In this document: in pieces, positions 6,516 through 47,921 of the stretch
Position numbering within the stretch: the stretch's first letter is position 1
Layout: each line of letters starts with the position of its first letter
Source: Nitrospirota bacterium
GTDB lineage: Bacteria; Nitrospirota; Thermodesulfovibrionia; Thermodesulfovibrionales; Dissulfurispiraceae
DNA length: 64,000 nt
NCBI GenBank assembly: GCA_040752355.1
Contig: JBFMHE010000001.1
Span: 310,001-374,000, forward strand
Direction of reading: 5' to 3'
The notes under the pieces: generated by a model
The model's input: only the letters and a program-made list of their open reading frames with translations
Told to the model about the DNA's origin: nothing
Databases searched by the model: none
Position numbers and translations under genes: made by a program

Positions 6516-7502
6516 ATGACCACTGCGGCAGGGACGTTGCGGGAGGAAATACTACGGCTGAAAGCTGAACGCAAGGCGATCATCCTCTCTCATAATTATC
6601 AGCGCGACGAGGTGCAGGATATTGCCGATTACGTAGGTGATTCGCTCGAGCTTTCTCGTATTGCCGCGACACAGGAATGCGAGGTCATCGTCTTCTGCGG
6701 CGTCCACTTCATGGCCGAGAGCGCCTCGATCCTCTCTCCCGACAAGGTGGTCCTCCTGCCCGAGATCAGCGCCGGCTGCCCCATGGCGGAGATGGTGCAG
6801 GTCAGGTCTCCCCGGAGCGTCTGGAAGACCTTCCCCGGCTATGCTGTCCAGCCGGTCTTCGTCTTTCCCCATGACTTTACTCTGAGGGACATCAAAGCGC
6901 GTTACCCCGGCGTGCCGGTCGTCGCCTATGTCAACACAACGGCCGAGGTGAAGGCCGAGAGCGATATCTGCTGCACGTCGGCCAATGTCGTCAAAGTGGT
7001 CGAGTCGCTGCCCGATGAGCGGGTCATCTGTATCCCGGATCGCAATCTCTCGATGTGGGCGGCCAGGAACACCAGGAAAGAGATCATCGCTTGGGACGGG
7101 TTCTGCCATGTCCACGACAGGGTCACCAAAGAGGATGTCGAGCGGGCGAGAGCGGAGCATCCTGCCGCGCTCTTCATGGCGCATCCCGAGTGCAGGCTCG
7201 AGGTGCTCGAGCTCGCCGACCACGTAACGAGCACGTCGGGCATGCTGCGGTTCGCCCGCGAATCCGGTGCGAGGGAGCTCATCGTCGGCACCGAGCTGGG
7301 GCTGATGCACCGCCTCACGAAAGAGAACCCGGGCAAGATATTTCACCCGCTCAGAAGAGACATGATCTGCCCTAATATGAAGAAGACCACCCTCGGCAGC
7401 ATCCTCGCCGCGCTCAAGGAGATGAAGCCGGTGATCAAGGTGCCGGAAGAGATCCGGATACCCGCAAAGCGCGCCCTCGACCGGATGCTGGCGATACGGT
7501 AA
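6516..7502 (+). CDS. nadA: Quinolinate synthase
   Basis: A 328-residue protein that condenses iminoaspartate with dihydroxyacetone phosphate to quinolinate in de novo NAD synthesis. The family needs an oxygen-sensitive [4Fe-4S] cluster held by three cysteines. Conserved cysteines are seen at 88 (AGCPMAEM), 151-152 (CCTSANVV), 196 (DGFCHVH) and 284 (CPNMKKTT). The N-terminal SHNYQRDEVQDIADYVGDS motif is typical. No nadB or nadC is adjacent. The gene starts 9 bases after the transglycosylase stop, so they may be co-transcribed. Confidence 0.96.
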   Translation: MTTAAGTLREEILRLKAERKAIILSHNYQRDEVQDIADYVGDSLELSRIAATQECEVIVFCGVHFMAESASILSPDKVVLLPEISAGCPMAEMVQVRSPRSVWKTFPGYAVQPVFVFPHDFTLRDIKARYPGVPVVAYVNTTAEVKAESDICCTSANVVKVVESLPDERVICIPDRNLSMWAARNTRKEIIAWDGFCHVHDRVTKEDVERARAEHPAALFMAHPECRLEVLELADHVTSTSGMLRFARESGARELIVGTELGLMHRLTKENPGKIFHPLRRDMICPNMKKTTLGSILAALKEMKPVIKVPEEIRIPAKRALDRMLAIR

Positions 7503-7515
7503 GGAGTCACACGTA

Positions 7516-7687
7516 CAGCGGGGCGATCTGCAATGAAAAGTTGTTCCCAGCGATACCTTGAAGTATTAGCTAACCACGACTATAGCCTTACTGGAAAACC
7601 AGGTATATTCTTTAGCGATGAACTTGCAAAGCCCGTGATGGGATTCATCGCTTTGGAACGGCTTTTCATTGCAGATCGCCCTGCTGT
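7516..7687. repeat. 172-bp inverted-repeat element with internal hairpins
   Basis: The arms at 7516-7541 and 7662-7687 are reverse complements over 26 bases with one mismatch. Pairing continues inward with GTTCC/GGAAC. Inside are further complementary pairs: ATACCT/AGGTAT, and AGCGATGAA/TTCATCGCT (7613-7651). An open frame crosses it, but its peptide has no recognisable features and depends on the repeat. The layout resembles a MITE or a structured RNA. It sits between nadA and the methyltransferase gene. Confidence 0.6.
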
Positions 7688-7704: not shown

Positions 7705-8820
7705 ATGAATCCTCTTGAGCAGAAAATAGCCGATAGAATCCGTGCCGAGGGGCCGCTCAACTTCGAGACCTTCATGGAGATGGCGCTCTATTATCCCGGC
7801 CTCGGATATTACACGAGAGAGGCCGCGCGCATCGGCAGGGCAGGGGACTTCTACACCAGTCCCCATCTCCACTCGCTCTTCGGCGCCATGCTCGGCAGGC
7901 AGCTCGAAGAGATGTGGCAGCTCATGGGGAGGCCCGATACGTTGCATGCCGTGGAGATGGGCGCCGGAATGGGATACCTGGCGAAGGACCTGCTCGACTA
8001 CCTAAAGCATAAGGAACTATATCCTTGTCTGGCCTATACGATCATCGAGCTGAATCCGTCGATGCGGCGCAACCAGGAGGAGCTGCTCCGTGAGCACACG
8101 GGGAAGGTGTCGTGGGCATCGGCGCTCCGTGACCTCTCTTCGATGAGGGGCTGTATTGTATCGAATGAGCTCCTCGACGCCTTTCCGGTGCGTCTTGTCG
8201 AGATGGATGACGAGCTTTCCGAGGTTTATGTTTCGGTATCGGAGGAAGGCCACTTTATCGAAGTGAAGAAGCCCTGCTCTCCGGAGATAGCGGACTACTT
8301 CGCTGGCTTCTCGATCGCGCTGCCCAAGGGGTTCAAGACCGAAGTGAACCTGCGCATCAGGGAGTGGCTGCAGGATATCTCCCGCTGCCTCGAAGAGGGT
8401 TTCGTGCTGACCATCGACTACGGCTATTCCGCGGGCGACTATTACAGCGAGGATCGGAGCCGCGGAACGCTCCTCTGCTACCATCAGCACCAGCTCAACG
8501 AGAATCCCTACCAGCACATCGGCGAACAGGACATGACCGCGCATGTCAATTTTTCCTCCCTCAAGAAGTGGGGAGAGCAATACGGGCTGAAGGCGGTCGG
8601 CCTCTGCTCGCAGGGACCCTATCTCGTGGCGCTCGGCATCGATGAGGTGATCACCGAGCGGTACGGCCCTGCCCCCGACCCCTTCGAGATGGCGAGAGTG
8701 AAGAAGCTGCTCTTCCCGCAGGGCATGGGGGAGTCCCACAAGGTGATGATACAGTATAAAGGGAAAGCCGACCCGCATCTCCGGGGCTTCTCGTTCCGCA
8801 ACCAGGCCGGAAAGCTCTAG
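7705..8820 (+). CDS. SAM-dependent methyltransferase, MidA/NDUFAF7 family
   Basis: A 371-residue protein matching the COG1565/Methyltransf_28 family. Visible motifs are LYYPGLGYYTR near the N-terminus, the SAM-binding VEMGAGMGYLAKDLL, SNELLDAFPVR, and DYGYSAGDYY. The mitochondrial homologue NDUFAF7/MidA methylates an arginine of a complex I subunit during assembly. A role in complex I maturation here is only an inference, since nuo genes lie 4 kb upstream. ATG 7705 was chosen over an upstream frame that runs through the inverted-repeat element. The stop overlaps the convergent gene's stop in a CTAG tetramer. Confidence 0.88.
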   Translation: MNPLEQKIADRIRAEGPLNFETFMEMALYYPGLGYYTREAARIGRAGDFYTSPHLHSLFGAMLGRQLEEMWQLMGRPDTLHAVEMGAGMGYLAKDLLDYLKHKELYPCLAYTIIELNPSMRRNQEELLREHTGKVSWASALRDLSSMRGCIVSNELLDAFPVRLVEMDDELSEVYVSVSEEGHFIEVKKPCSPEIADYFAGFSIALPKGFKTEVNLRIREWLQDISRCLEEGFVLTIDYGYSAGDYYSEDRSRGTLLCYHQHQLNENPYQHIGEQDMTAHVNFSSLKKWGEQYGLKAVGLCSQGPYLVALGIDEVITERYGPAPDPFEMARVKKLLFPQGMGESHKVMIQYKGKADPHLRGFSFRNQAGKL

Positions 8821-28573: not shown

Positions 28574-28774
28574 GGGACTTGGAGCATCTAACATGATGAG
28601 TAGAAAGAGCCGGACGAGGCAGAGTGCATTCGTCTCATTCTCGACGGGCATCCGGCCCGTCTCCGAGGCTAGGACAGCTCGGAATCGAGTCGTACCGACC
28701 CGCTTCGCCGTCCTGGCTCCGCCTGGGCTGTCCAAGCCGCTCATGTACTCTACCTCATCCGACTCCAAGCCCTT
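28572..28774 (+). repeat. Structured dispersed element, copy A (between pyrC and carA)
   Basis: An outer stem AAGGG(A)CTTGGAG/CTCCAAGCCCTT and a second stem GGACGAGGCAGAGTGCAT (28612-28629) with its near-complement at 28743-28760 enclose a core at 28634-28706. The core is almost identical to the reverse complement of the 46613-46792 copy, including AGCTCGGAATCGAGTCGTAC. Inside are hairpins GACGGGC/GCCCGTC and GTCG/CGAC, and the pair GGACAGC/GCTGTCC. No convincing gene lies in the 237-base gap. It is in the same sense as the pyr operon. Confidence 0.7.
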
Positions 28775-28810
28775 TCATTTTGTTAAGAGCTCTCAATATC
28801 GGGAGGATGA

Positions 28811-46501: not shown

Positions 46502-46612
46502 GAGAACGCTCTCTGAAAACTCCTCTCAAGTGATACAATAACTTTTTACTATAACCTAAACGGAGCTATTCTTTCATCCATCTCTAGTCAGGGATAGGGC
46601 AATTACGTGAGG

Positions 46613-46792
46613 ATGAATAGGGAGGGGGAGCGAGGCGAGGCATTTGGAGCGGCATGGGCAGCCCTGGCGAAATCCAGGGATGGTGAAGCGGGTCGGTACG
46701 ACTCGATTCCGAGCTGCCCCGCCTCGGAGACGGGCCGGATGCCCGTCGAGAATGAGCGCAAATGCCTCGCCTCGCTCCCCCTCCCTATTCAT
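46613..46792 (-). repeat. Structured dispersed element, copy B (between the DUF3108 gene and uvrA)
   Basis: Perfect 34-base inverted ends (46613-46646 and 46759-46792) close the element. On the minus strand the core contains hairpins GACGGGC/GCCCGTC, CTCG/CGAG, GTCG/CGAC and CCCTGG/CCAGGG, plus the pair GGGCAGC/GCTGCCC. The core matches copy A at 28572-28774. The right arm includes the last codons and stop of the DUF3108 gene. Open frames across it are artefacts of the repeat. Confidence 0.75.
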
Positions 46793-47921
46793 TAGCATGC
46801 CCTGCATCCAGGGACTTGAGCTTTGCGGTGACGGTGCCGATGGGAACTTTGGTCTCGACCCTCACCGGGATCTTCCGTTCATCATTGGTGAGCCAGATGA
46901 AGATATCCCCGCTCTTCTTGAAGAGCCCATCGGTCGTGAGGACCGGCTGCACCTTGATGGTCTCCACATCGCCGCCTCCCGGCAGCTCCGCCTGCTCTTT
47001 GGCGAGGACCTTCACCTCGACCTTGATGAACTTGTTGCTGTCGAAGACATCGATATAGACCGGCTTGCCGATCTCGAGGGTCTGTGTCCTCAGGTAGTAG
47101 AAGCCGGAAATGACATCCCATATCGGCGGCTCCGCAACCGTGTGCTCGTCTCTGGTCCCCTTGAGATGGTTGAGGAAGGTGATCTTCTTCGACGCGAAAT
47201 CGAAGAGCGTCTCTTTGTCGCTGCGGTACTTGCCTTCGCGCTGTTTTATCTTGAAATGCGCCGGAACGCCCCCGACGATCCTGCTCTCCGAAAAATCCTC
47301 CACCTTGTAGAACGCCGAGATGACGGGAGCGGAGCGCACCCTCGAGGTGATGGTGACCTCGTCCTCGCTGCTGACCGCATCGAGAACAGCGCTGCCCACG
47401 TAGATCCCTGCCCAGTAGATATCGAAGGCGAGTCGCTCCTGGAATGCTGTTTTTAAAAGAGGAGCAAGCGCTTCGACTTTCTGCTGCTCTGCAGCAGCCG
47501 GTTCAGCGGTATTCCCGGCGCTTTGTGGAAGAGCTTCGGCATCCTTCGGCTCCGTGCGGCTTATGTGCTCTCCGGGAGGCTGGTCACCAACGCTGCTCTC
47601 TTCTCCGCTAAGGCGTGTTTCTTCCTTCTTAACAGGAGGGCCGGCATTCTTTTCCTCTGAGGATGATTCACCGGATGTGCTCATCAGGGGCATGGGTACC
47701 GGAGCTGATAAAGAGGGTTCCTTGCCACCTTTATCGGTAACGGGCCGGTCTTCTGCTACCAATCGCGCTAAGAGTAGTGTTGTAGAAAGGGGGGCAGGAA
47801 GCATGAATCCCCCGCGCGACGTGACGCCTGCGATAACGAAGAGATGCAGTGCCACGGAGAGGACAAGAGGAACGAGAAGGGGAATAACGATTTTTTGGGA
47901 CACTCTCATAGAGAAAACCAT
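46785..47921 (-). CDS. DUF3108 domain-containing protein
   Basis: 378 residues. An N-terminal transmembrane helix (VIPLLVPLVLSVALHLFVIAGV) is followed by a long low-complexity Pro/Ser/Glu linker to about residue 155 and a C-terminal DUF3108 domain (LAFDIYWAGIYVGSAVLDA, YKVEDFSESRIVGGVPAHFKIKQREGKYR, FDSNKFIKVEVKVL). The domain resembles periplasmic or envelope proteins with an LolA/LppX-like beta fold. The exact function is unknown. Its final three codons lie inside the arm of structured element B. Confidence 0.85.
   Translation of the reverse strand: MVFSMRVSQKIVIPLLVPLVLSVALHLFVIAGVTSRGGFMLPAPLSTTLLLARLVAEDRPVTDKGGKEPSLSAPVPMPLMSTSGESSSEEKNAGPPVKKEETRLSGEESSVGDQPPGEHISRTEPKDAEALPQSAGNTAEPAAAEQQKVEALAPLLKTAFQERLAFDIYWAGIYVGSAVLDAVSSEDEVTITSRVRSAPVISAFYKVEDFSESRIVGGVPAHFKIKQREGKYRSDKETLFDFASKKITFLNHLKGTRDEHTVAEPPIWDVISGFYYLRTQTLEIGKPVYIDVFDSNKFIKVEVKVLAKEQAELPGGGDVETIKVQPVLTTDGLFKKSGDIFIWLTNDERKIPVRVETKVPIGTVTAKLKSLDAGHANE

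What the first reader, a model, noticed from the sequence alone, without database searches (positions are those of the whole stretch)
7516..7687. A second, unrelated multi-hairpin element upstream of the MidA-like gene
26-base arms with one mismatch close a 172-base unit that contains two further complementary pairs (AGCGATGAA/TTCATCGCT and ATACCT/AGGTAT). Its layout is like the 28.5/46.7 kb element, but the sequence is different. It sits immediately before the methyltransferase start, where it could also affect expression.
Basis: seen in the sequence. Interest (0 to 1): 0.55.

Follow-up and report, generated by a model that had tools for sequence, protein, structure and literature searches.

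The report
Mobile hairpin repeat with strand-specific fold
The 173-base hairpin between nadA and midA is one copy of a family of small mobile repeats found throughout one class of Nitrospirota bacteria, in which the pairing arms change sequence but stay complementary on one particular strand, so the folded single strand (probably an RNA) seems to be what is preserved.

Summary
Window 7515-7687 has 33-nt arms, 91% complementary, and folds far better than shuffles (z -8). It is not unique: its genome holds 8-9 copies, and a covariance model finds relatives in 62 of 176 genomes of the order (up to 61 hits per genome) and, in the phylum sample, only within the class Thermodesulfovibrionia. The closing motif GCGAYACCTTA / RTCGC persists while the outer arms diverge with compensation: 34 of 34 pairs show double changes.

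Arm mismatches are almost all G.U on one strand (133 vs 12 A.C in 81 representatives; 21 vs 0 in the BLAST-found set), so one strand, as RNA or ssDNA, is under constraint. Active subfamilies look like MITEs: inverted ends, 4-bp (some 8-bp) target duplications, a nested insertion. None of 20 other genomes with adjacent nadA-midA carries the insertion. Copies lie antisense to co-directional neighbours 75:11; the window copy is a sense exception.

Tests for REP/RAYT, reverse transcriptase, an IS sharing the ends, Rfam and an own promoter were negative. The mobilising enzyme and the function of the fold are unknown.

The parts
7515..7687 (+). whole hairpin element, constrained (core-forward) strand on +, sense to nadA and midA
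7515..7547 (+). left arm (variable sequence, complementary to right arm)
7655..7687 (+). right arm
7550..7554 (+). GCGAT, 5' strand of the conserved inner closing stem, followed by conserved ACCTT
7647..7651 (+). ATCGC, 3' strand of the conserved inner closing stem
7555..7646 (+). subfamily-specific loop (type A: AAGTATTAGCTAACCACG...TATAGCC...AAAACCA)
7614..7652 (+). inner hairpin AGCGATGAA/TTCATCGCT predicted in this copy; alternative to the conserved closing stem, not a consensus helix
6516..7502 (+). nadA (quinolinate synthase, PF02445), upstream neighbour
7705..8820 (+). midA-like methyltransferase (PF02636), downstream neighbour

Best explanation
A copy of a class-wide family of small non-autonomous mobile elements (MITE-like) built as [ends]-[variable complementary arms, ~30 bp]-[conserved GCGAYACC.../...RTCGC stem and loop]-[arms]-[ends]. 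Shown: dispersal in many copies, target duplications in young subfamilies, an insertion absent from relatives, compensatory change in the arms, strong G.U polarity on one strand. Inferred: it moves by a transposase acting in trans, and the folded core-forward strand, most likely as RNA, is under selection because something binds or processes it. The window copy is an old insertion between nadA and midA. Transcription of that pair would put a hairpin of about -85 kcal/mol into the mRNA, a plausible RNase III substrate (inferred).
For: 5 copies by BLAST in the own genome, 8 convincing plus 1 weak by covariance model. 62/176 genomes of the order, up to 61 hits in one. 54/395 in the phylum sample, all labelled same class or nearer. 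34/34 pairs with double changes, 92.6% of cells paired against 38.6-49.7% when slid. G.U vs A.C 133:12 in 81 representatives and 21:0 in 14 BLAST-found elements. 17 of 32 copies with located ends have an exact 4-bp duplication; two exact and two 7/8 8-bp duplications among ten G027 copies. One copy nested in another element. Insertion absent in 20/20 relatives with the adjacent gene pair. Antisense:sense 75:11.
Against: No transposase or IS sharing the ends was found. The window copy itself shows no recognisable duplication or CCTTACAG-type end. No promoter signal distinguishes the RNA 5' side. G.U polarity would also fit a single-stranded DNA hairpin. Counts come from related sequences and are not independent. 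The covariance model scores G.U as a pair, so model-found members may be enriched for it (the 14 BLAST-found ones are not).
Confidence: 0.72

Rival explanations
1. The constrained form is a single-stranded DNA hairpin recognised on one strand by a recombinase, as with integron attC sites or IS200/IS605 ends, rather than an RNA.
For: Strand polarity, conserved asymmetric C/TT internal loop and conserved mismatches; no promoter signal.
Against: Young copies carry inverted ends and variable-sequence target duplications typical of double-strand DDE transposition. Y1 transposase not found in G017, which has copies, and 0 of 20 Y1 loci carry a convincing element.
Confidence: 0.18
2. A cis-acting regulatory hairpin (attenuator or processing site) that controls midA.
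For: It sits 17 nt before midA in sense orientation and folds very strongly.
Against: Absent at 20 of 20 other nadA-midA junctions; no common neighbour gene across copies, which are mostly antisense to their neighbours.
Confidence: 0.06
3. A REP/RAYT-type palindrome system.
For: Dispersed intergenic hairpins; Y1 transposases in 121 of 176 genomes of the order.
Against: Among 20 Y1 loci one weak 22.6-bit model hit; no long inverted repeat of this kind in the 6 loci inspected; copies have target duplications.
Confidence: 0.02
4. A retron-like or other RT-dependent RNA element.
For: Long paired RNA ends around a conserved AGCGA motif recall a retron msr-msd (recalled resemblance).
Against: RVT_1 not found in G000, G004, G011, G017, G018, G019, G029, which carry copies.
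Confidence: 0.02

Closest known systems
Bacterial MITEs such as Correia/NEMIS of Neisseria and QMITE2 of Coxiella (passages of review PMC10969869 read)
   Same: 100-230 bp, non-coding, multi-copy, inverted ends pairing over long stretches, target duplications, stable transcript fold, possible RNase III cleavage or sRNA production.
   Different: In ordinary MITEs the ends are the conserved, transposase-recognised part (established knowledge). Here the arms drift with compensation, the apical closing motif is conserved across a class, and mismatches show strand polarity. No parental IS found.
Pneumococcal BOX, RUP and SPRITE repeats (passages of PMC3049150 read)
   Same: Dispersed structured repeats, two of the three families with ends folded together and TSDs.
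   Different: The passages read report enrichment between convergent genes, not a strong antisense bias to co-directional neighbours; no relation in sequence was tested.
REP/BIME with RAYT
   Same: Intergenic palindromes in many copies.
   Different: No RAYT association; much longer; target duplications.
Integron attC and IS200/IS605 hairpins (recalled)
   Same: Conserved structure with variable sequence and strand polarity through bulges.
   Different: Conserved part is apical; no cassette arrays seen; TSDs present.

Membership tests
MITE | Short, non-coding, multi-copy, dispersed | tested here: met
MITE | Terminal inverted repeats | tested here: met
   CCTTACAGTTGCATAAAA/...TATGCAACATTAAGG in G013, G011, G277 etc.; GGTAGTGTCTCAG in G027. 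Not recognisable on the window copy.
MITE | Target site duplication | tested here: met
   17 of 32 exact 4-bp; 8-bp in G027, two exact and two 7/8 of ten printed; none seen for the window copy
MITE | A parental autonomous transposon with the same ends | tested here: not met
   9 end matches in 26 genomes and the G013 ends listed gave no transposase; a parent may be lost or in other genomes, so MITE-like is used, not a named IS family
REP/RAYT | RAYT gene flanked by the repeats | tested here: not met
   one weak partial hit among 20 Y1 loci
Retron | Reverse transcriptase present | tested here: not met
   not found in own genome and six other carrier genomes
Known Rfam RNA | Score above gathering threshold | tested here: not met
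   window, 0 hits; 18 loci, no family above its threshold
Integron attC | RYYYAAC/GTTRRRY core sites and an integron integrase | not tested
   no such core sites noticed by eye; integrase not searched
Structured non-coding RNA | Compensatory changes and wobble tolerance on one strand | tested here: met
Structured non-coding RNA | Expression | not testable with these tools
   no RNA-seq; promoter scan negative

The most novel reading that the evidence does not exclude
The elements are mobile genes for a structured RNA, a bacterial counterpart of SINEs: the RNA core is the persistent entity across a whole class, while the transposable ends are exchanged (at least two end types with 4-bp or 8-bp duplications around homologous cores), and the RNA recruits or controls the machinery that copies it.
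Probability: 0.2. Interest if true: 0.88.

Novelty: new variant of a known kind. Interest (0 to 1): 0.6.

Why it matters
It is a dispersed repeat whose pairing arms are replaced copy by copy while one strand's fold is kept, which is unusual for a MITE and makes it testable whether a bacterial mobile element depends on a structured RNA (or strand-specific ssDNA). It also supplies a marker family for poorly studied Nitrospirota and may break up operons such as nadA-midA.

Tried and rejected
Rfam at gathering threshold on the window and at E<=5 on 18 loci: nothing consistent. Search for a recurrent neighbouring gene in 93 loci: only generic genes and spurious ORFs over the repeats. Exact pattern AGNCTTTNCCNGCGAYACCTTA in GTDB genomes and IMG/VR: Halomonas L124, deltaproteobacterial L139 and viral L196/L197 hits inspected and rejected as chance. 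Plasmid and phage DNA searches: none. RT dependence, RAYT association, IS with the same ends, own sigma70-like promoter on the RNA 5' side (left better than right in 65 of 125, p 0.79): none supported. An idea that the RNA's ACCTTA matches the CCTTA ends (as in IS110 bridge RNAs) was dropped, because subfamilies with other ends keep a similar internal motif. A TATAAA-like -10 in the left spacer noted early was not borne out. The first gene-orientation count mislabelled the window copy because of a spurious ORF; the repeat used stricter ORFs. Arm identities are gapped and inflated and are not used.

Full report
Observation. The window at 7515-7687 holds 33-nt arms that are 91% complementary. 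As RNA the region folds at -85.7 kcal/mol, z -8.2, with no shuffle of 200 as stable; the opposite strand is similar. It lies between nadA (PF02445, stop at 7502) and a midA-like methyltransferase (PF02636, ATG at 7705). Element GC is 47% against 59% for the window.

Copies. A DNA search of the window's genome found four further places, at 78-85% identity, mostly over the inner 115 bases only. Outside that core the arms differ from copy to copy yet pair within each copy. A covariance model R1 from 14 elements found in the same genome the five known copies (148-168 bits), three more (62-71 bits), one weak place (39.8 bits) and one reverse-strand shadow of a real copy at 50 bits. That shadow is a warning that palindromic arms alone can score about 50 bits, so weak hits in other genomes are less certain. 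In the order R1 matched 62 of 176 genomes at E<=0.001, with only 15 candidates scored per genome. With 150 candidates scored in 11 genomes, counts ranged from 8 to 61 (G013 61, G027 57, G019 55, G004 41). In a phylum-wide sample 54 of 395 genomes matched at E<=1e-6, all labelled same class or nearer; how many of the 395 lie outside the class was not printed. The order is taken as Thermodesulfovibrionales from the titles of matching records.

Anatomy. Of 23 elements printed (7 more had short loci and were not printed), 22 keep ACC directly after the inner closing stem; L060 has GCC there. The common plan is an outer arm, a region near AAAAGNCTTTNCC, GCGAY-ACCTTA, a subfamily-specific loop, RTCGC, TTGNAAAG, and the complementary arm. 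Many copies also carry a tandem mismatch in the arms that reads as G.A/A.G (offsets 15-17). On 74 aligned elements (one of them the L004 shadow) all 34 model pairs show changes on both sides, 92.6% of cells are paired against 38.6-49.7% for slid partners, and the covariation score is 0.685 against 0.213 for shuffles. That alignment was fitted to the structure, which favours it; the unfitted MAFFT alignments give 26 of 34 and 30 of 35 pairs with double changes.

Strand polarity. Arms were aligned by a DNA-symmetric method, so G.U and A.C mismatches are equally detectable. In 133 elements there were 221 G.U-type and 24 A.C-type mismatches on the core-forward strand. In 81 representatives under 85% identity there were 133 and 12 (58 elements with more G.U, 4 with more A.C, 19 ties). 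In the 14 elements found by BLAST rather than by the model there were 21 and 0 (10, 0, 4). A double-strand cruciform would show both kinds equally. The simplest reading is that the core-forward single strand, as RNA or ssDNA, is under structural selection. Shared ancestry means that the p values overstate the evidence.

Mobility. In G013 most copies are near-identical up to sharp ends CCTTACAG...TTAAGG, and one is inserted inside an element of another subtype. With both ends located in 32 copies of several genomes (9 others not located), 17 have an exact 4-bp duplication, mainly TTAA, TTTA, TCAA, TTGA. In G027 a subfamily with GGTAGTGTCTCAG ends shows 8-bp duplications, AATAAAAG and CCATATTC exact and two at 7/8, out of ten copies printed. 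So homologous cores travel with at least two kinds of ends. The pattern of the first kind of end in 26 genomes gave 9 matches with no transposase beside them, and most listed G013 matches pair up as elements or lie at contig ends. Of 30 fetched midA loci, nadA is adjacent in 21: the own genome and 20 others. Only the own locus carries the element; the other gaps run from -1 to about 100 nt, one is 235 nt. The window copy is therefore best read as an insertion in this lineage, although its own ends have decayed and I could find no duplication.

Orientation. In 147 copies with simple ORF-based gene calls, 130 have both neighbours within 400 nt: 75 antisense to two co-directional genes, 11 sense, 28 between divergent and 16 between convergent genes; 14 were too far and 3 at contig edges. 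The bias holds below and above 50% GC (58:8 and 17:3). The window copy is sense to both neighbours by the Pfam-supported genes. The cause is unknown. It is compatible with selection against the constrained strand appearing in mRNA, but no promoter signal was seen on the 5' side (65 of 125, p 0.79).

Known systems. Rfam: no match. Reverse transcriptase: not found in seven carrier genomes including this one. RAYT/Y1: present in 121 of 176 genomes, not found in the carrier G017, and one weak hit among 20 loci. Plasmids and phages: none. Literature: searches listed no paper whose title or abstract start describes such a repeat in Nitrospirota. In the passages seen, PMC12306157 lists Thermodesulfovibrio yellowstonii in a table of REP predictions, and a review of MITEs and a paper on pneumococcal repeats describe folded transcripts and RNase III cleavage. 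The library holds only open-licence papers.

Verdict. A real, mobile, MITE-like family with a strand-specific conserved fold: a new variant of a known kind. The function of the fold and the enzyme that moves it are open. An effect on midA is possible but secondary.

Noticed in passing
window 28580-28780 (+) and 46600-46800 (-): The other hairpin element has the same design: a nearly identical inner core (ATTCTCGACGGGCATCCGGCCCGTCTCCGAGGC...CTCGGAATCGAGTCGTACCGACCCGCTT) with diverged arms that pair in each copy; a second unrelated family.
   Followed up: partly
L090, L084, L205 right flanks: Pieces resembling the second family (CATTCTCGAAAGGCATCCCGCC...) lie directly beside elements of the first family, suggesting that the two families nest or share targets.
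   Followed up: no
L101 1298-1476(+)/1501-1685(-) and L109 1501-1687(+)/1717-1895(-): Two elements of different subtypes in inverted orientation, 24-29 nt apart, in two places of one genome, with similar spacers.
   Followed up: no
G013 contig ends: Many contigs of this MAG start or end inside an element copy; the repeat appears to break assemblies.
   Followed up: no
L303 between nadA and midA (235 nt): A different unidentified insertion-like stretch at the same junction in another genome.
   Followed up: no
L208: A copy with a longer apparent target duplication (TCATAACTTG...) and a truncated left end, unlike the usual 4 bp.
   Followed up: no
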